From contig NZ_GL476310.1 of the NCBI RefSeq assembly GCF_000148725.1, positions 493,562 through 538,561 of the forward strand: a stretch of DNA of 45,000 bases, given 5' to 3'. The notes below the pieces were generated by a model that saw only the letters and a list, made by a program, of their open reading frames with translations, was not told where the DNA came from and ran no database searches. This document shows, in pieces, positions 2,911 through 20,743 of this stretch. Position 1 is the first letter of the stretch. Each line of letters opens with the position of its first letter. The stretch comes from Roseibium sp. TrichSKD4 (GTDB lineage Bacteria; Pseudomonadota; Alphaproteobacteria; Rhizobiales; Stappiaceae). A program made the translations under genes and the position numbers.

Positions 2911-2930
2911 GGCCACCAGTTTTGGTGGCC
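2911..2930. other. Perfect 8-bp hairpin GGCCACCA-GTTT-TGGTGGCC
   Basis: The stem-loop lies 27 nt upstream of the small minus-strand gene, in its 5' leader or promoter. No T-run follows on either strand, so it is not a classic terminator; an operator or leader structure is possible. Confidence 0.4.
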
Positions 2931-2943
2931 AGGCGATGACGGG

Positions 2944-3062
2944 TTGACAGACCGGCTAGAGGACCGGCAGAGCAAAGCTCTCCCATCACGCCCGACCATA
3001 AAAAACGCGCATGCGGCAAGCCGCTGCGCTTCGGGTGCGCCTCTAGTTCAACCGGCTGTCAA
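2944..3062. other. Structured non-coding segment with an interrupted long palindrome
   Basis: The left arm reads TTGACAG, CCGG, CTAGAGG and the right arm reads CCTCTAG, CCGG, CTGTCAA, so the two ends of this 119-bp segment are inverted copies with small insertions. Inside are GAGCAAAGCTC, GCGGC-AA-GCCGC and GCGC-TTCGGG-TGCGC hairpins. The intergenic gap 2885-3299 carries no convincing gene, and this segment is its only clear content. It resembles a transfer or replication site, or a structured RNA of a mobile module, but no family is recognised. Confidence 0.35.
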
Positions 3063-11246: not shown

Positions 11247-11296
11247 TTTCGTAAGGGAGTGATTTTGGCTCATCATTGCTAACTCAGGAGCAAATG

Positions 11297-11671
11297 ATGA
11301 GACGAAAGAAGGATCGAGTGACCGACGATGCGGATTGGATCGTAAAAGACATCAAACGCCAGACCCGCCGTCGGTTTTCCGCTGAAGAGAAGATCCGCAT
11401 AGTGGTTTCTGGTCTTCGAGGCGAAGACAGCATTGCAGAACTTTGCCGCCAGGAAGGTATCGCCCAGAGCCAGTATTATTCCTGGTCCAAGGACTTCATG
11501 GAAGCGGGCAAGAAACGGCTTGCTGGGGACGCAGCTCGTGAAGCCAGTTCTGATGAAGTAAAGTCTCTTCGCAAAGAGACGAGGGACTTGAAGGAAGTGG
11601 TTGCAGAACAGGCTCTGGAACTTCGCCTTCTCAAAAAAAGCATGATCGGGGATGGGGTCGACGACGAATGA
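11297..11671 (+). CDS. IS transposase OrfA
   Basis: The protein of about 124 residues has the helix-turn-helix RRRFSAEEKIRIVVSGLRGE...IAELCRQEGIAQSQYYSW and a C-terminal coiled coil (VKSLRKETRDLKEVVAEQ). Two ATGs are present; the second, at 11297, lies 6 nt after AGGAG. Its stop overlaps the orfB start in ATGA, so the two are translationally coupled. Confidence 0.9.
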   Translation: MRRKKDRVTDDADWIVKDIKRQTRRRFSAEEKIRIVVSGLRGEDSIAELCRQEGIAQSQYYSWSKDFMEAGKKRLAGDAAREASSDEVKSLRKETRDLKEVVAEQALELRLLKKSMIGDGVDDE

Positions 11672-12648
11672 GATATCCCGCCTCCGAGAAACTTGAAATC
11701 ATTCGACTGGTGGAGCAGTCCCATCTTCCAGTCAGACAGACGCTGGATCGGCTGGGTATTCCAAGGTCAACCTTCTACGTCTGGTATGACAAATATCAAA
11801 CCGGTGGCATAGATGCCTTGCAGGACACGGCCCCCATGCCTGCACGGGTCTGGAACCGGATCCCCGATGATATCCGCCAACAGGTCATTGATCTGGCCCT
11901 GGAAGAACCGGAACTCTCACCTCGGGAGCTGGCTGTCCAGTTTACGGACACAAAGCAGTACTTCGTGTCTGAGGCCAGTGTTTACCGGTTGCTGAAAGCC
12001 CATGACCTCATCACCAGTCCGGCCTTTATCGTGGTCAAGGCAGCTGACGAGTTCAAGAACAAGACCACAGCGCCCAATGAGCTGTGGCAGACAGACTTCA
12101 CCTATCTGAAGGTTATTGGCTGGGGTTGGTTTTACCTGTCAACAATCCTTGATGATTACAGCCGCTATGTCATCGCGTGGAAGCTGTGTACGACGATGTT
12201 GGCCAGTGATGTCACGGATACGTTGGAACTGGCCTTACAGGCTTCAGGCTGTAATCAGGCCAGTGTCCGCCACCGGCCAAGACTGTTGTCGGACAATGGG
12301 TCAAGTTACTTCGCCGGTGAGCTGGCCGACTGGCTCGACGACAAAGGCATGGACCATGTGCGTGGAGCCCCATACCACCCCCAAACGCAGGGCAAGATCG
12401 AAAGATGGCATCAGACCTTGAAAAACCGGATCCTTCTGGAGAACTACTTCCTGCCCGGTGACCTCAAAGCCCAAATAAGCAAGTTCATCAGCCACTACAA
12501 TCATCACCGATATCACGAGAGCTTGAAGAACCTCACACCCGCTGACGTCTACTTCGGGCGCGGCGAACAAATCCTGCGCAAACGAGAAAGGATCAAACAA
12601 AGCACCATCGAACAACGCCGCTTGCAACACCGCAAACAGGCCGCCTAA
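11668..12648 (+). CDS. IS transposase OrfB (rve/DDE integrase)
   Basis: This 326-residue protein has its own N-terminal HTH (LGIPRSTFYVWYDKY), a HTH_21-like linker and an rve core. The DDE residues are in WQTDFTYLK, LLSDNGSSYF and GKIERWHQTLKNR, and the C-terminus has HYNHHRYHESLKNLTPADVY. Its 3' two thirds are repeated without visible difference at 31745-32428. It is intact and probably active. Confidence 0.92.
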   Translation: MRYPASEKLEIIRLVEQSHLPVRQTLDRLGIPRSTFYVWYDKYQTGGIDALQDTAPMPARVWNRIPDDIRQQVIDLALEEPELSPRELAVQFTDTKQYFVSEASVYRLLKAHDLITSPAFIVVKAADEFKNKTTAPNELWQTDFTYLKVIGWGWFYLSTILDDYSRYVIAWKLCTTMLASDVTDTLELALQASGCNQASVRHRPRLLSDNGSSYFAGELADWLDDKGMDHVRGAPYHPQTQGKIERWHQTLKNRILLENYFLPGDLKAQISKFISHYNHHRYHESLKNLTPADVYFGRGEQILRKRERIKQSTIEQRRLQHRKQAA

Positions 12649-15191: not shown

Positions 15192-15219
15192 CCATCAAGG
15201 AGCGTTAGCGCCTTGATGG
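15192..15219. terminator. Hairpin terminator between dppF-like gene and rtcB
   Basis: CCATCAAG pairs with CTTGATGG around a GCG-TTAG-CGC tip, followed on the plus strand by a T-rich tract (TTTCTTCTTCTTCC). It ends the ABC operon. The rtcB stop codon lies within the hairpin, so it may serve both convergent transcripts. Confidence 0.6.
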
Positions 15220-16608
15220 TTTCTTCTTCTTCCAGAATGGTTCGATCTCGCCAGCCATGATGCAGCCATAGGGATCGATATAGTCCTCGATCTCGGCAAG
15301 GCCGAATTTCTTGATTTGGGCGACCACCGCCCCGGCCTTCTTGTAGCCGGATGGCAATTCCGACACGTCAATCTTGTTTTCATAGAAACGGATATCGAGA
15401 CCATTCGTTTCTTCAACAAGAAGCTCCTCGGCTGTTTTTCCCGCCGACCGGCGTTTGTGCTCCGAGCGCGAGTAGTTTCGTCCTGCACCATGCGGTGAGA
15501 AGCCAAGGGCATGGGAAGCATCCTTTCCGCGAACCACCAACACCGGTTCCGCCATGTTGAGCGGGATCAGTGTCAGTCCGGTCGCATCCGAAGCATAGTC
15601 TTCCCAGGCCGGGGTAGCTCCCTTGCCGTGATAGAAGAGGTCTCCCCGCTTGAAGACGAAGTTATGTTCGTTCCAAAAGCGCCTTGTCACCGTTGCACCT
15701 GCCAGATCGCTCGCGGCCTGATGGATCGCGTTGTGGTTCGCCTTGGTCCATTTGCGGATCAGCTGCAAGGCTTCCCAGTAGGCAATCCCTTCTTCCGTTT
15801 CAGCTGGAATCCACGCGTTCTGCTTCAAAGTTTTCGGCGACAGCTTGCGGCGGAACTTGTCCGCGACATTCATGCCGATCTTGTAGAGCAAAGCACCCGG
15901 TCCACGCGAGCCGTGATGGGTCACAAGCGTGGTCTTGCCGGTGTTTCGTGAAGTGCCGACGAACAGGAAGTGGTTGCCGTCACCCTGTGTCCCCAGATGC
16001 TCCTGCGCAGCGCGCAAGATTTTCGGGTTGTTCAGGTAGCGGTTTTCCCGAAATGCCTCATAGAGTGACATCGAAAGGGTAAAGCGCTTTCCGTTGGCAA
16101 GGCCACCTGCCCTGAAATGTGTCATGGCATGGGCTGCATCCAGAATCTTTGCCGGCTCTGTTTCCTCGAATTCGGTCATCATCACGGAGCAGCAGATATC
16201 CGCGCTATGCATTCCCGGGTGGATCGCACCACGCGCCGCAACAACGCCGCCCACCGGAATTGTCCCGAGCGGTCCGGCCGGGCAGACATCCGGCATGACG
16301 GCACCCGCCTCGATGGTCGGGGTCCGCATCAATTCGGTCATGTGGTGTTTTACTGCAATGAGGTTTGCTTCCTCATCAGAGTCTTCTGCCTCGATGCTTA
16401 TATGGAACGGCTTGGCCCCGGAAGGGGAAAGGGGAATGGTCAGAGCTGGCTTATAAGATTCCAGCATCTGGCGCACGACTTCCAAAGAGGTGCCGTGATC
16501 AAGTGCTGTCTGCCCGTCACGAAGGGCTGCGCCAAAGGCCTTGCCTTCCGCGTGGCCCCAGGATTTCAAAAGCTCGCTGGTCAGTTTTTCTTCGGTCAAC
16601 ATCGTCAT
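15205..16608 (-). CDS. rtcB: RNA ligase RtcB
   Basis: RtcB joins RNA 2',3'-cyclic phosphate (or 3'-phosphate) ends to 5'-OH ends using GTP and Mn2+. The protein of about 467 residues shows the family metal site ADICCSVMM (canonical ADIGCGM), GDGNHFLFVG, the HHGSRGPG histidines and the guanylylation motif SPHGAGRNYSRSEH. The ADICC version and associated rsr place it in the branch found with Ro proteins. The frame is open from 16635, but the ATG at 16608 with GAGAA upstream gives the usual N-terminus. It is the last gene of the rsr-Y RNA-rtcB unit, 51 nt after the fourth RNA. No rtcA (RNA cyclase) is present in the window. Confidence 0.95.
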   Translation of the reverse strand: MTMLTEEKLTSELLKSWGHAEGKAFGAALRDGQTALDHGTSLEVVRQMLESYKPALTIPLSPSGAKPFHISIEAEDSDEEANLIAVKHHMTELMRTPTIEAGAVMPDVCPAGPLGTIPVGGVVAARGAIHPGMHSADICCSVMMTEFEETEPAKILDAAHAMTHFRAGGLANGKRFTLSMSLYEAFRENRYLNNPKILRAAQEHLGTQGDGNHFLFVGTSRNTGKTTLVTHHGSRGPGALLYKIGMNVADKFRRKLSPKTLKQNAWIPAETEEGIAYWEALQLIRKWTKANHNAIHQAASDLAGATVTRRFWNEHNFVFKRGDLFYHGKGATPAWEDYASDATGLTLIPLNMAEPVLVVRGKDASHALGFSPHGAGRNYSRSEHKRRSAGKTAEELLVEETNGLDIRFYENKIDVSELPSGYKKAGAVVAQIKKFGLAEIEDYIDPYGCIMAGEIEPFWKKKKPSRR

Positions 16609-16659
16609 GGCATTTCTCGTTTCAATGTTCGGCAACCAGTTCCGGACAAAATTGAGGTT

Positions 16660-16806
16660 CGCAGGGCAAGGTTGGACAAGATGAAAATTCCGCCACCGGA
16701 TATTCCGGGCCAGACTTGAACTGGCACAGGACCGGCTTCCCGGTCCTCCCCAAGGCGGTTGTGCGCTTCAGGGGCGTCTACCTGTAATCCTGTCGGCATC
16801 CCTGCG
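16660..16806 (-). ncRNA. Y RNA-like gene D (fourth, nearest rtcB)
   Basis: The 147-nt RNA is closed by CGCAGGG/CCCTGCG (7 bp), then ATGCC facing CAACCTTG, then helix 2 GACAGGAT/ATCTTGTC (8 bp with one G-U), then TACA, the same plan as the other three. Its insert has a perfect T-arm, GCCAG-TTCAAGT-CTGGC (16709-16725), an acceptor-like hairpin CCGGA-ATA-TCCGG, and a long side stem AGGACCGG-GAAG-CCGGTCCT resembling a large variable arm. GGTAGACGC before the T-arm and TGGCGGAATT after the acceptor look like the two parts of a leucine-tRNA D-arm. No normal D-arm is formed. The class call rests on the shared outer helices. Confidence 0.75.
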
Positions 16807-16853
16807 GATCTCTTTACAATCCGCAATCGGCCTGCCTTTCGGTAAAATCCGCA

Positions 16854-16991
16854 GCCAGGGCGGCAAGGTGGGTGCAAAACGTTCCTGCTCTACCATTGAG
16901 CTACGCCGCATCAAATGGCTGCGGCGGCGGGATTTGAACCCGCAACCTGGCGATTAACAGTCGATGTAGTTCTGCAGGCATCCGCCCTGGC
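16854..16991 (-). ncRNA. Y RNA-like gene C with an almost complete permuted tRNA
   Basis: The 138-nt RNA is closed by GCCAGGGCGG/CCGCCCTGGC (10 bp perfect), followed by ATGCC, helix 2 TGCAGAAC/GTTTTGCA (8 bp, one G-U), then TACA. The insert contains a T-arm GCGGG-TTCAAAT-CCCGC (16927-16943), acceptor strand CGCCGCA, then GCCATTTGA, then the matching acceptor strand TGCGGCG (7 bp perfect, 16904-16910), TA and the D-arm GCTC-AATGGTA-GAGC (16887-16901). The order is T-arm, acceptor, D-arm, so the acceptor end is a closed loop and cannot be charged. CGA-CTGTTAA-TCG before the T-arm mimics an Asn (GTT) anticodon arm. This is the layout known for YrlA-type Y RNAs, which mimic tRNA and bind Rsr through the outer stem. 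Confidence 0.88.
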
Positions 16992-17018
16992 TGTTTGTTT
17001 TTTCTTCAAGTTCGGTGC

Positions 17019-17038
17019 GCTCGGGGGCAGCCCCGAGC
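17019..17038. other. Hairpin between Y RNA-like genes B and C
   Basis: GCTCGGGG/CCCCGAGC is an 8-bp stem with a 4-nt loop in the 60-nt spacer between the two RNAs. On the minus strand no T-run follows, so it is more likely a processing or spacer structure than a terminator. Confidence 0.4.
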
Positions 17039-17051
17039 AGGTTGTGTCAGT

Positions 17052-17181
17052 CGGCGGCAAGGGCGTGATGAAACATCAAAACCTGCGTCTTTCCTCGTTA
17101 GACGACACCGCGATCTCGCGGCGGCGTGGCTCGACCCACGCGTTTCAGGTTCCTGCGATGTAGTTCCATCGGCATCCGCCG
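17052..17181 (-). ncRNA. Y RNA-like gene B
   Basis: The 130-nt RNA is closed by CGGCGG/CCGCCG, then ATGCC facing CCTTG, then helix 2 GATGGAAC/GTTTCATC (8 bp with a G-U at the same place as in the other copies), then TACA. The insert has a T-arm-like hairpin CGTGG-GTCGAG-CCACG, an acceptor-like stem CCGCG-AGAT-CGCGG and then GTGTCGTCTAACG, which resembles the start of a glycine- or glutamine-tRNA D-arm, again in T, acceptor, D order. The acceptor stem is shorter than in copy C. It lies 27 nt after copy A and 60 nt before copy C in transcription order. Confidence 0.78.
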
Positions 17182-17208
17182 TTGAAATTCAGTCAGCTGC
17201 CAACAAGC

Positions 17209-17337
17209 CCAGACGGCAAGGAAGAAGAAACGGTGGGAGTCCCGCTCGAGCCTAAGAGCGCCTGCAAGGAGGGGAGTCGAACCCACTCGGACTGGTCCCT
17301 TTTATGGCGCAATGTAGTTCCTTCGGCATCCGTCTGG
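17209..17337 (-). ncRNA. Y RNA-like gene A (first after rsr)
   Basis: The 129-nt RNA is closed by CCAGACGG/CCGTCTGG (8 bp perfect), then ATGCC facing CCTTG, then helix 2 GAAGGAAC/GTTTCTTC (8 bp, one G-U), then TACA. The insert has a T-loop GTGGG-TTCGACT-CCCCT (one mismatch in the stem), a tiny acceptor-like hairpin CCT-TGC-AGG and a D-arm-like GCTC-TTAGGCTC-GAGC. It is the least tRNA-like of the T-arm/D-arm set apart from copy D. It lies 45 nt behind the rsr stop, so it is probably cut out of a shared transcript. Confidence 0.78.
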
Positions 17338-17347
17338 TTTTGTCTGG

Positions 17348-17379
17348 CGAAGGCGGCAACAGCTGTGCCGCCACCTTCG
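17348..17379 (-). other. Stem-loop between rsr and the first Y RNA-like gene
   Basis: On the minus strand CGAAGG and GGCGGCA pair with TGCCGCC and TTCG around CAGCTGT, giving about 11 bp with a 3-nt bulge. No T-run follows. It overlaps the first bases after the rsr stop and could mark an RNase cut or attenuate read-through. Confidence 0.45.
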
Positions 17380-17382
17380 GGT

Positions 17383-18956
17383 TTATTCGGTCAGGTCGAT
17401 CGCTTCGATCTCGCCAACCCATTGGATTGCGTCCATTTGACCCGCCGCAAATCGCGCAATCTGGTCGAATACTGCGTCGGAGAAACCTCCGACATTCAGG
17501 ATGTCCGACCGGGTCGCGGCCTGCGCCGTGCCGTAGGGCGCAATGTCGATGCACACCAGCGCGCATCCGGCTTCCGCCGCTTGAGCGTTTCCCAGGCACG
17601 CATCACGCCGGTGCGTTCTGCACCATGGTGACGGCCCCAGGTGTCAACCCAGGACTGGTTGTCGGAAACCAGGATCACCAGGTCCGGAGACCGTCGGTTC
17701 TGGTTCAGCCATTCCAGCGGCGCGGCACAGTTCGTTCCGCCGCCCCATTGTGCGGCGAGCTTCTGGGCGTTGGTCATGATCGTGTCGCGCGGTTCCAATG
17801 CAACCTTGCGGACATTCACTTCGAATGGCAGCACGGTTCCGCCCCGGTTCCGCCTGAGGACGGCAGCAGCCACAAGGGCGGCCACATCCACAAACCGTGT
17901 CCGGAACGTTGCTCCCTTTCGCAGGCCCGTCACCACCCCGCTCATCGAGCCGGAAACATCTGGGCAGACAACAACCTGTCCCTTGAAGGACGGAACGTTG
18001 GCAACGGCCAGTTCGAGCGCATCATGCATTGCCTCGCGAATTGCCAGCGACATGTCCGCAGACAAGGCCTGATAGGCCGTCATCAGCTGGTAAGGGAAGG
18101 CATTTGCCTTCTTCACCCGCTGCGGATCCCGGAGAATGGCCGCAACATCTGCCGTAGCCTGGGTATCTTCAAAGACACCGTGGCGCAGGAAAGTGTTGAG
18201 GTTCATCCGCACCATGTTCCAGCTGCCCTGCCGAGCGATCTTCATCCACTGCTTCTGCGAGAGAGGCAGGTGGGTAAGCATCTGGAACGGCACATCCGGC
18301 ACCGGACGCCCCTTCGGGTCGGCCTTGAACGAAACATAGTCGCGAATCTCAGCTGGCAGGGCGTCGGCGGCACACGGCTTGCCGATCAGCCATGCAAAGA
18401 GGGCGTCCCGCTGCGCATCACGCGGCTTGGGGTGTACCATCTTGATGACATCCGCCAGCGACGGATCATTACCCACGCTTGCCTGAAGCAGCTGATAGTC
18501 GGTGGCCGAGTTCAGCCAGCCGCGTACCAGAGCCTTCGGGCGAGACCCGAGCGAGCGCCGCCCGGTTTGTCCCGACCGCATGATCTGCACGAAGTTTCGC
18601 AACATCTTGCCGTTACTCGCGACCTTCGGAAAGGCGCGGGACAAAAGAACCGGGTCACGGGTTGCGAGGATCGCCAGCAAAAGCGCGGGCAGATCCTTCA
18701 TCTTGCCCTGCTGGCGGGCATAGACCGCCGTCTTGGCAAGAAACTCGTCCGGCACAGCGTTTGCGACCTGAAGGACAGTCGCAAGTTCCATCTCGGCATC
18801 CTGATAGTAGAGGTCGCCGATGGTTCCGGTCACTGCCAGCTGGGCCAGCTTGTGCTGGTCGTCATATTTATAGGCGTTGCCACCCGCCAGGTTAACGGCG
18901 TTGGTCTCGGAACCAAAACGTCCCTTCAGGGACGCGAATAGAGACTTGTTAGCCAT
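17383..18956 (-). pseudogene. rsr: Ro60/TROVE-vWA protein Rsr, with a 1-nt frameshift near the 3' end
   Basis: Rsr is the bacterial Ro60 orthologue, a HEAT-repeat ring that binds Y RNAs and misfolded RNA ends. The start at 18956 has GGAGGG 6 nt upstream. The TROVE part covers about residues 25-350 (YDDQHKLAQLAVTG, LLLAILATRDPVLLSRAF), then a vWA domain with the MIDAS motif DVSGSMSG and WGGGTNCAAPLEW. At about 17560 the frame breaks: as written it ends at 17496 with a nonsense tail, but adding one base after DAR restores LVCIDIAPYGTAQAATR, FSDAVFDQIARFAAG and a normal end at 17383. The lost part includes the last vWA strand. It is a recent mutation or a sequencing error, because everything downstream of the break is conserved. 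Confidence 0.88.
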
Positions 18957-19056
18957 GATGCCCTCCTTCGGGTTTGAGGCTGGAAGCGATGTGCTTACGT
19001 GTTCGTGTTTAGGAGGAGAATGCGTTAGGTGCCGTTGAGGCAAAAGAAAAAATTCA

Positions 19057-19162: not shown

Positions 19163-20743
19163 GTGAAGAAGAACGTCGTTATCGGGTTCCTGGGAACGCA
19201 GCTGGATTCGGGTAAAAAGCGGAAATGGCGTCCTTCCGTGGCAGTGACCCAGCATGGCGGCTTTCCTGTTCATCGGCTGGAGCTGTTGCATGACCGCGGG
19301 TGGTCCCGTCTTGCCAATCAGGTGAAGCGCGAGATTGAGGAAGCGTCCCCGGCAACGGAAGTGTTGCTGCAGCAAGTCGATTTGAAGGACCCTTGGGACT
19401 TTCAGGAAGTTTACGGCTCCCTGTTCGATTTCGCTCGTGGCTATGGGTTTGATGAGGATCGGGAAGACTATTTCGTACACCTGACCACCGGAACCCACGT
19501 AGCGCAGATTTGCTGGTTTCTCCTGACGGAATCCCGACATGTGCCAGCCAAGCTTGTTCAGACCTCTCCACCCCGCGCAAACGAGACCGGTGTTCTCGGA
19601 GCCTACAACGTCGTTGATCTCGATTTGTCGCGATATGACGCCTTGCAGCAGCGATTTGATCTGGTTGCCGAGGAGTACAACGCCCTTTTGAAGGCCGGAA
19701 TTGAGACCCGCAATCCAAGGTTTAACAGCCTGATCGAGCGCATAGAGCTTGTTGCGACCAACTCGGACGCACCGCTCCTCCTGCTGGGTGCAACGGGAAC
19801 CGGCAAAAGCGAACTGGCGGAGCGCATCTACGAGCTGAAGCTTCAGCGCCGCCGGGTAAAGGGGCGTCTGGTGCATGTGAACTGCGCCACACTGAAAGGT
19901 GAGCGGGCGATGTCGAACCTCTTCGGACACAGGCGCGGGGCCTTCGGCAGCGGGACATCGGATCGACGCGGTCTTCTGCGCGAGGCGGATGGCGGTGTTC
20001 TGTTTCTCGATGAAATCAACGAACTGGGGCTGGATGAGCAAGCTATGATCCTGCACGCGGTCGAGACCGGAAGGTTCCTGCCGCTTGGCTCGGACCACGA
20101 GATCACCAGCCGGTTTCAGTTGATCGCCGGAGCCAATCGCGATCTGGGACAGCTGGTTGCTGACGGCAAATTTCGGCCGGACCTTCACGCGCGCCTGAAC
20201 CTTTGGACGTTCCGATTGCCCTCTTTGACCGAGCGTCGCGAGGATATTGAGCCGAATGTAGAATACGAACTCAACCGGGCGGAGAAACTGCTCGGCACGC
20301 GGGTCGGCTTCAACGCGGATGCCTATGCCCGCTATCTCGATTTCGCGACGTCCCCGGCAACCCTGTGGCCGGGGAACTTCCGTGATCTCGGTGCCTCCGT
20401 TCAGCGACTGAGCACGCTTGCCCCTCGGGCGCGGATCACGCTGGCGCTAGTTGAGCAGGAAATTGAGGCCCTGCAGGCCCAATGGGCGGCGGCAAAGACA
20501 GATCCGGACGGTGCCTTGCTGCGCGACGTGCTGGGCGAGAGGGCTGGGGAGCTGGATCCCTTTGACAAGGTACAGCTGGCCTATGTTATTCGGATTTGCC
20601 GGGAAAGCGCTTCCCTCAGCGCCGCCGGGCGCACTCTTTTTTCCGCATCTCGTGCGGCAAAGGCCAGTCAGAATGACGCCGATCGCTTACGTAAATATCT
20701 CGCAAGGTTTGCGCTAAGGTGGTCGGATTTGGCAACTGACTAG
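19163..20743 (+). CDS. rtcR: RtcR, CARF-AAA+ regulator of the RNA repair operon
   Basis: The 526-residue protein has the order known for RtcR: an N-terminal CARF-like sensor (VVIGFLGTQLDSG, FVHLTTGTHVAQICW), an AAA+ domain with Walker A GATGTGKSE (about residue 208), Walker B GGVLFLDEIN and sensor region WPGNFRDL, and a short C-terminal DNA-binding domain. RtcR activates rtcB operons in response to RNA damage products. The loop that should read GAFTGA and contact sigma-54 reads GAFGSG here (about residue 257). The start is GTG at 19163 with AGGA 8 nt upstream. Divergent from rsr, as usual. Confidence 0.92.
   Translation: MKKNVVIGFLGTQLDSGKKRKWRPSVAVTQHGGFPVHRLELLHDRGWSRLANQVKREIEEASPATEVLLQQVDLKDPWDFQEVYGSLFDFARGYGFDEDREDYFVHLTTGTHVAQICWFLLTESRHVPAKLVQTSPPRANETGVLGAYNVVDLDLSRYDALQQRFDLVAEEYNALLKAGIETRNPRFNSLIERIELVATNSDAPLLLLGATGTGKSELAERIYELKLQRRRVKGRLVHVNCATLKGERAMSNLFGHRRGAFGSGTSDRRGLLREADGGVLFLDEINELGLDEQAMILHAVETGRFLPLGSDHEITSRFQLIAGANRDLGQLVADGKFRPDLHARLNLWTFRLPSLTERREDIEPNVEYELNRAEKLLGTRVGFNADAYARYLDFATSPATLWPGNFRDLGASVQRLSTLAPRARITLALVEQEIEALQAQWAAAKTDPDGALLRDVLGERAGELDPFDKVQLAYVIRICRESASLSAAGRTLFSASRAAKASQNDADRLRKYLARFALRWSDLATD

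What the first reader, a model, noticed from the sequence alone, without database searches (positions are those of the whole stretch)
16660..17337. Array of four tandem tRNA-mimicking Y RNA-like genes between rsr and rtcB
Four consecutive RNAs (129, 130, 138 and 147 nt) fill the 770-nt gap between rsr and rtcB on the minus strand, and none can be a protein gene. Each has a private closing helix of 6-10 bp, ATGCC on the 5' side facing CCTTG on the 3' side, a second 8-bp helix, TACA, then a tRNA-like insert. Rsr is known to bind Y RNAs, and YrlA-type Y RNAs imitate tRNA; most described loci carry one or two. Four divergent copies, each resembling a different tRNA, suggest a family of Rsr guides or adaptors linked to RtcB repair. 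I cannot tell whether such arrays are already described.
Basis: partly seen in the sequence, partly recalled or inferred. Interest (0 to 1): 0.92.

Follow-up and report, generated by a model that had tools for sequence, protein, structure and literature searches.

The report
tRNA-mimicking Y RNA gene array
Between two tRNA-damage genes this bacterium carries four small RNA genes that appear to share one protein-binding stem but differ in an insert that imitates part of a transfer RNA, and many related bacteria carry such sets too, often with spare real tRNA genes mixed in, which suggests a toolkit for coping with attacks on tRNA.

Summary
Four units (17337-17209, 17181-17052, 16993-16852, 16806-16660, minus strand) lie between rsr and rtcB, each with an outer helix, AUGCC/CCUUG loop, 8-bp inner helix and UACA. 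They are bacterial Y RNAs: Rfam YrlA finds units 3 and 2 (63.2, 39.3 bits; cut-off 69). Four is ordinary here: in 61 related gaps a helix search finds 192 units (shuffles 1.15), three or more in 42. New is the variety of inserts. Unit 3 is a YrlA-type permuted tRNA keeping a 7-nt anticodon loop (GUU). Unit 4 is a leucine-tRNA-like body opened in the D loop, a permutation I did not find described in the papers held; 37 other D-loop-opened units turned up. Some units elsewhere show little but an anticodon stem-loop. Among 15 unit-3 sequences the anticodon is the most variable triplet. In 39 of 80 related loci real tRNA genes sit in the array, 59 in all, only Asn, Gln, Lys and Pro. Best reading: a tRNA-damage operon under RtcR whose Y RNAs show tRNA parts, on Rsr, as decoys or adaptors for enzymes that attack or handle tRNA. 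Identity is firm; mechanism is inference; expression and binding were not testable.

The parts
17209..17337 (-). Y RNA unit 1 (class C): outer helix CCAGACGG/CCGTCTGG, ATGCC/CCTTG loop, 8-bp helix 2, TACA, insert with T-like arm carrying a one-nt bulge (17288-17269) and D-like arm (17259-17244)
   Evidence: comparative fold of class C; weak in YrlA (16.1 bits) and R1 (28.6 bits)
17052..17181 (-). Y RNA unit 2: YrlA-order tRNA module, T-like arm 17141-17124, capped acceptor 17123-17106, D arm 17103-17087 (Glu-like by eye only)
   Evidence: YrlA 39.3 bits, E 4.9e-7; not reported by R1 at E 0.01
16852..16993 (-). Y RNA unit 3: YrlA-order tRNA module with anticodon stem-loop 16963-16951 (loop CTGTTAA, anticodon GTT), T arm 16943-16927, capped acceptor 16926-16904, D arm 16901-16887
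   Evidence: YrlA 63.2 bits, E 6e-14
16660..16806 (-). Y RNA unit 4 (class B, Leu type): tRNA body opened in the D loop: D 3' half 16782-16774, anticodon arm without 7-nt loop 16773-16748, long variable arm 16747-16728, T arm 16725-16709, capped acceptor 16708-16696, D 5' half 16695-16686
   Evidence: R1 117.5 bits (the unit is among the 25 sequences the model was built from); no YrlA match
17383..19043 (-). rsr (Ro60/TROVE and vWA); start uncertain (TTG at 19043 or ATG at 18965); the 515-aa open frame stops at 17496, the rest lies in another frame ending at 17383
15205..16635 (-). rtcB RNA ligase
   Evidence: PF01139, E 9.5e-35
19163..20743 (+). rtcR, sigma-54 activator with RtcR domain, divergent
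   Evidence: PF06956, E 7.7e-75
17349..17378 (-). GC-rich hairpin between the rsr stop and unit 1, stem kept in the closest relative

Best explanation
The array is a set of bacterial Y RNAs. All four share the stem that Ro60/Rsr proteins bind (stem shown by sequence and structure; binding inferred). Each carries a different module that copies part of a tRNA: a body with an anticodon loop (unit 3), a body opened in the D loop with its ends sealed (unit 4), a YrlA-type body (unit 2), a piece with T-like and D-like arms (unit 1). They are probably made with rsr and rtcB when RtcR senses cleaved tRNA (inferred from gene order and published Salmonella work). I commit to this mechanism: held on Rsr, the modules engage enzymes that recognise tRNA parts. 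They can hardly decode or be charged, because the acceptor is capped and most lack an anticodon loop, but they still offer the elbow or an anticodon loop. So they act as decoys that draw tRNA-attacking nucleases away from real tRNA, or as adaptors that bring tRNA-handling enzymes such as PNPase to Rsr, while RtcB reseals cut tRNAs and, in many relatives, spare tRNA genes in the same array replace lost ones.
For: Y RNA identity; 279 R1 hits at E<=0.01 in the window plus 99 loci, all on the rsr strand; two-sided changes in 7 of 7 outer and 7 of 8 inner pairs of the unit-4 family, 128 cells against 43 shuffled, 0 of 500. D-loop opening: 38 units by motif, window included; of 45 units picked by geometry alone 33 have between their ends a D stem of three G-C or four Watson-Crick pairs, shuffled heads mean 19.1, maximum 26 of 200 runs; RNAalifold predicts the same stem in the consensus of the 13 non-Leu units. 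Anticodon loops, not conditioned on sequence: 76 seven-nt loops just after TACA in 328 distinct units, shuffles 29.5; T at position 33 in 57 of 76 against 21%, purine at 37 in 60, A at 34 in 6. Variable anticodon: the most variable of 134 three-column windows in 15 unit-3 sequences. Spare tRNAs: 59 in 39 of 80 loci, only Asn, Gln, Lys, Pro; all 48 in loci with a delimited gap lie between rsr and rtcB, and 52 of 59 have descriptor units on both sides; in the two genomes checked they are second, divergent copies. RtcR binds tRNA fragments ending in cyclic phosphate, and YrlA as competitive inhibitor of the nuclease was already suggested (PMC7790460, passages); Rsr and YrlA bind PNPase (PMC9879122, passages).
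Against: No expression, binding or cleavage data. Unit 1 folds worse than shuffles alone; units 1 and 2 do not beat shuffles against tRNAs. In one search one of five measures, further pair types, is no better than shuffles (38 against 38.0), and the three D-stem pairs never vary, so they give no covariation. Anticodon variability may be relaxed constraint. Two of 74 anticodon loops carry stop anticodons, about what chance gives, and the anticodons do not map onto the four kinds of array tRNA. Only 74 of 328 units show an anticodon loop by the strict scan, so a nuclease decoy explains only some. Fragments of Salmonella YrlA were not detected when tRNAs were cut. A simple -24/-12 search shows no site before rsr. 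The window has no tRNA gene, and its rsr frame is broken near the end.
Confidence: 0.5

Rival explanations
1. Adaptor only: the modules are tethers that bring PNPase or tRNA-modifying enzymes to Rsr for decay of broken RNA; variety reflects several partners, not decoying.
For: Published: Rsr and YrlA bind PNPase (PMC9879122, passages) and DusA and TruB modify YrlA (PMC8394870, passages). A T-like arm is required by the classes that take 223 of the 344 descriptor hits.
Against: Does not explain units that show little but an anticodon stem-loop (34 of 75 inserts under 45 nt by the strict scan), the variable anticodon or spare tRNA genes in the array.
Confidence: 0.3
2. Substrates or sensors: the units are bait whose cleavage at the displayed anticodon loop yields fragments that feed RtcR, amplifying the signal.
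For: RtcR responds to RNA ending in 2',3'-cyclic phosphate; some units show real anticodon loops.
Against: No fragments of Salmonella YrlA were detected (whether it has an anticodon loop I could not check); only 74 of 328 units here show such a loop.
Confidence: 0.1
3. Decaying tRNA insertions: Y RNA loops collect tRNA pieces by recombination and drift without function.
For: Likeness to tRNAs is not significant for units 1 and 2; stop anticodons are not depleted.
Against: Compensatory changes in T and acceptor stems of the unit-4 family; the ends are usually sealed in the same way; at least one unit is present in 59 of 61 gaps.
Confidence: 0.07
4. Not RNA genes: structured spacer or chance repeats between rsr and rtcB.
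For: Unit 1 folds no better than chance alone.
Against: 192 units against 1.15 expected; covariation; YrlA matches.
Confidence: 0.02

Closest known systems
YrlA, Rfam RF02553 (Salmonella YrlA, PDB 6CU1)
   Same: Stem with AUGC/CUUG loop; circularly permuted tRNA-like insert in the order T arm, capped acceptor, D arm; beside rsr and rtcB. Units 2 and 3 align end to end; the permutation is published (PMC11472068, passages).
   Different: All four units are under the curated cut-off. Unit 3 keeps an anticodon stem-loop; unit 4 is opened in the D loop and keeps anticodon and variable arms; unit 1 lacks a proper acceptor. In 14 related loci YrlA reports 12 matches over its cut-off where the descriptor finds 61 units.
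Salmonella rsr-yrlBA-rtcBA RNA repair operon
   Same: rsr, Y RNAs and rtcB in one direction, rtcR divergent (PMC7790460 and PMC9879122, passages).
   Different: The next long ORF after rtcB runs on the other strand, so no rtcA follows directly; four Y RNAs instead of two; many relatives add tRNA genes.
Anabaena trn operon under TrcR (PMC10272220, passages)
   Same: A stress-induced set of extra tRNA genes controlled by the same regulator as rtcB.
   Different: 26 tRNA genes on a megaplasmid and a repressor; no Rsr or Y RNA in the passages seen. An analogue for the spare tRNAs of relatives only; the window has none.
tRNA
   Same: T arm, D arm and acceptor helices; ARAGORN reads two relatives' class-B units as tRNAs.
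   Different: Acceptor closed by a hairpin, order permuted, carried on a Y stem; no tRNA call in the window.

Membership tests
Bacterial Y RNAs (broad sense) | Terminal stem from pairing of 5' and 3' ends with the conserved internal loop (AUGC opposite CUUG) | tested here: met
Bacterial Y RNAs (broad sense) | Encoded beside an rsr gene | tested here: met
Bacterial Y RNAs (broad sense) | Bound and stabilised by Rsr | not testable with these tools
   needs immunoprecipitation and RNA sequencing
Bacterial Y RNAs (broad sense) | Stable small transcript | not testable with these tools
   no expression data
YrlA (Rfam RF02553) | Score at or above the curated gathering score of 69 | tested here: not met
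   63.2, 39.3, 16.1 bits and no match for units 3, 2, 1, 4
YrlA (Rfam RF02553) | Permuted insert in the order T arm, acceptor, D arm, opened at the anticodon | tested here: inconclusive
   met by units 2 and 3; unit 1 has T-like and D-like arms but no proper acceptor; unit 4 is opened in the D loop instead
tRNA genes | Continuous cloverleaf found by ARAGORN | tested here: not met
   0 genes in the window
RNA repair operon under RtcR | rtcR divergent from rsr and rtcB | tested here: met
RNA repair operon under RtcR | sigma-54 (-24/-12) promoter before the operon | tested here: inconclusive
   38 matches with up to 2 mismatches in the window, 28.8 expected, none in the rtcR-rsr gap

The most novel reading that the evidence does not exclude
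rsr-rtcB arrays are a tRNA-emergency kit: RtcR senses cut tRNA; Y RNAs display tRNA parts (elbow, D-loop-opened bodies, bare anticodon stem-loops with exchangeable anticodons) as decoys for anticodon nucleases and other tRNA-targeting factors; RtcB reseals; spare divergent Asn, Gln, Lys and Pro tRNAs replace the attacked ones. The anticodon of a unit is swapped in evolution to follow the attacker, as in an arms race, and phages carry versions of the kit inside tRNA clusters.
Probability: 0.35. Interest if true: 0.93.

Novelty: new variant of a known kind. Interest (0 to 1): 0.82.

Why it matters
What Y RNAs do in RNA repair operons is open; the 2020 operon paper says its studies did not address it (PMC7790460, passages). 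The arrays make the question testable in natural form: many modules on one scaffold, in two tRNA permutations and as bare anticodon stem-loops, with anticodons that change while the stem is kept, beside spare tRNAs of only four kinds. That predicts which tRNAs are attacked in these hosts and which module should protect them. It also shows that the Rfam YrlA model reports only part of the family (12 matches over the cut-off where the descriptor finds 61 units).

Tried and rejected
Rejected readings. Protein genes: ORFs of 100 aa or more cross the array on both strands, but they were not searched against any library; I set them aside because they ignore the unit boundaries. Real tRNA genes: none in the window. 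Chance helices. Guide RNAs: no evidence, dropped. A sigma-54 site by simple pattern: none before rsr. Likeness of units 1 and 2 to particular tRNAs: not above shuffles; the Glu-like and Ser-like labels are by eye. rsr in E. coli genomes by distant DNA match with a Xanthomonas query: none.

Not universal, and the descriptor misses units. Of eight loci scanned, five gave no unit (L175, L177, L179, L181, L182); four were tried again with looser settings and gave at most one doubtful hit each. For the genome of L182 (G043) R1 had found three matches beside rsr, so a descriptor zero is not proof of absence. R1 has a match in 10 of 289 genomes of the class of G001 and Rsr in 10 of 398 genomes of its phylum, G001 itself included in both: the system is patchy.

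Literature. Ten searches. Passages seen, no whole text: PMC7790460, PMC11472068, PMC8394870, PMC7824862, PMC9879122, PMC10272220, PMC11042736. Asked for and not held: Chen 2014, Wang 2018, Sim and Wolin 2018, Sim 2020, Burroughs and Aravind 2016 (its DOI recalled by me). They could describe arrays or some of these classes; 'not found described' covers the held library only.

Rows dropped or chosen. One search used 61 of 80 loci (the others lacked a called rtcB downstream on the same strand). One search left 121 of 344 descriptor hits unclassified, false hits among them. One search dropped hits without TACA and then duplicates (356 to 328). A4 is 15 unit-3-like sequences picked by eye, window included; A5 is 29 of 38 class-C units plus the window (three with a long extra insert and six others left out). 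R1 was run on 99 of 111 loci, ARAGORN on 110 of 111. The class-B motif count selects on the D-stem motif, so its full pairing is circular; one search is the independent test and is weaker (four-pair stems 17 of 45, shuffled mean 9.4, maximum 16).

Full report
What was checked. The window's minus strand carries rsr, then a gap, then rtcB; rtcR lies divergently upstream. Each has an outer helix, ATGCC facing CCTTG, an 8-bp second helix and then TACA.

What they are. Of the Rfam families, YrlA (RF02553) is the one that fits. Without a threshold it finds unit 3 at 63.2 bits (E 6e-14), unit 2 at 39.3 (4.9e-7), unit 1 at 16.1 (2.5) and unit 4 not at all; the gathering score is 69, so a routine search reports none. 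The stem is the YrlA stem. Y RNAs in the broad sense is a safe filing; YrlA in the strict sense is not, least of all for units 1 and 4.

Relatives. An alignment of eight Rsr proteins brought 80 genome loci, the best of 371 (the closest, L010, Roseibium sediminis, is 92% identical in Rsr), and 22 viral loci; nine more came from eight plasmids and one phage. A helix descriptor finds 192 units in the 61 rsr-rtcB gaps that could be delimited, against a mean of 1.15 in shuffles and 27 in ten times as much flanking sequence; the counts per gap are 0 in 2, 1 in 4, 2 in 13, 3 in 17, 4 in 14 and 5 in 11. With short units allowed, single loci reach 7. A covariance model R1 made from unit 4 and 24 relatives finds 279 matches at E<=0.01 in the window and 99 loci, all on the rsr strand; its training sequences match by construction. 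Arrays are thus usual where rsr-rtcB occurs in this clade, but the system is patchy: Rsr in 10 of 398 genomes of the phylum.

Two permutations of tRNA. In known YrlA the tRNA is opened at the anticodon, so the order is T arm, capped acceptor, D arm; that this is a circular permutation is published (PMC11472068, passages). Units 2 and 3 follow it. Unit 4 does not: it runs D-arm 3' half, anticodon arm, long variable arm, T arm, capped acceptor, D-arm 5' half, that is, a leucine-type tRNA opened in the D loop. Joining its ends raises its best tRNA score from 34 (Pro) to 45 (Leu CAA), against a maximum of 42 in 100 shuffles, a modest margin. The family evidence is stronger. There are 25 Leu-type (window included) and 13 other D-loop-opened units by motif. 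Among 45 units selected by geometry alone, 33 have a D stem of three G-C or four Watson-Crick pairs between the ends, against a mean of 19.1 and a maximum of 26 in 200 runs with shuffled heads. RNAalifold predicts the same stem in the consensus of the 13 non-Leu units. Outer, inner, T and acceptor helices covary in the Leu type on four of five measures, the fifth (further pair types) being no better than shuffles; its three D-stem pairs never vary. In most of these units, judged from the parsed arms, the anticodon arm ends in a tight loop and the acceptor in a short hairpin loop (L004 keeps a 7-nt loop, and some arms are ambiguous), so they look like tRNA bodies with the working ends sealed.

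Anticodon loops. In other units a hairpin follows TACA directly. Tested without any condition on its sequence, seven-nt loops are 76 in 328 distinct units (29.5 in shuffles); in them position 32 is C or T in 66, 33 is T in 57, 37 is A or G in 60, and 34 is A in only 6. That is the signature of anticodon loops. A scan that requires the signature lists 74, with GTT (14) and TGA (8) commonest and two stop anticodons, about the chance number. Of 75 units with inserts under 45 nt, 34 show such a loop and little else. Window unit 3 shows CGA-CTGTTAA-TCG, anticodon GTT. Among 15 unit-3 sequences, window included, the stem CGA/TCG never changes while the anticodon triplet is the most variable of 134 windows of three columns. 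Against the closest relative, unit 4 differs at three bases, all in the cap of its anticodon arm, and unit 3 has two of its four differences in the anticodon (GTT to ATG). Relaxed constraint could also give this.

Real tRNA genes in the arrays. ARAGORN tRNAs in the array zone (1,500-3,200 nt past the start of the Rsr match) of the 80 genome loci; two are class-B Y RNAs read as tRNA and one is odd, leaving 59 in 39 loci: Asn-GTT 21, Gln-TTG 14, Lys 12, Pro 12, and no other kind. The same loci have 11 calls outside, of other kinds apart from one Pro. All 48 in loci with a delimited gap lie between rsr and rtcB, and 52 of the 59 have descriptor units on both sides. In the two genomes checked the array tRNAs are second, divergent copies beside the usual ones. 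The window has none. Several viral loci put rsr among many tRNA genes. That Cas13a prefers tRNAs with U-rich anticodons, Lys and Gln among them, is published (PMC11042736, passages); I use it only as an example of an attacker.

How it may work. Shown: the stem, the modules, the arrays, the loops, the tRNA genes. From published work in other species: RtcR binds tRNA fragments ending in 2',3'-cyclic phosphate and turns the operon on; YrlA was suggested as a competitive inhibitor of the anticodon nuclease and its own fragments were not detected (PMC7790460, passages); Rsr and YrlA bind PNPase (PMC9879122, passages); DusA and TruB modify YrlA (PMC8394870, passages). Inferred: that the four units are made together with rsr and rtcB under RtcR, sit on Rsr, and draw or recruit enzymes that recognise tRNA parts. 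I put decoy or adaptor as stated at about one half, with adaptor alone as the main rival.

Limits. Nothing was measured. Unit 1 is the weakest: on its own it folds worse than shuffles and rests on comparison. Units 1 and 2 show no significant likeness to any of the 41 tRNAs compared. Key papers on bacterial Y RNAs were not held. The descriptor misses some units. The window's rsr frame is interrupted near its end relative to the open frame of the closest relative; whether that is real or a sequencing error cannot be told here.

Noticed in passing
17383-17600: The rsr open frame (515 aa) ends early at 17496; the expected C-terminal end lies in another frame ending at 17383. The closest relative has an open frame of 587 aa and the DNA alignment shows two gap positions. 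Real frameshift or sequencing error.
   Followed up: partly
L020, L024, L037, L041, L047 and others, 39 of 80 genome loci (array zone): Extra tRNA genes of only four kinds (Asn, Gln, Lys, Pro) lie among the Y RNAs; divergent second copies in the two genomes checked.
   Followed up: yes
L090, L093, L094, L108, L109, L111: In these viral contigs rsr sits among many tRNA genes (6 to 23 ARAGORN calls per locus), sometimes with Y RNA units.
   Followed up: partly
L092:5849-7394: A 165-kb viral contig with seven descriptor hits downstream of rsr, among them Leu-like and other tRNA-like inserts, and tRNA genes nearby.
   Followed up: partly
L243:5577-6025: A Pseudomonas silesiensis plasmid has four short hits after rsr with loosened settings and no control, one with an ACG anticodon loop by eye, so short units may not be confined to alphaproteobacteria.
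   Followed up: partly
L013:7239-7333 and L014:7162-7255: ARAGORN reads D-loop-opened Y RNAs as tRNA-Arg and tRNA-Pro: a possible source of false tRNA annotation.
   Followed up: yes
2921-3003: C4 antisense RNA (RF01695, 61.3 bits).
   Followed up: no
11276-12648: Two adjoining ORFs that look like an IS3-type transposase pair, by eye.
   Followed up: no
17349-17378: GC-rich hairpin right after the rsr stop, stem kept in L010; a processing or attenuation site is possible.
   Followed up: no
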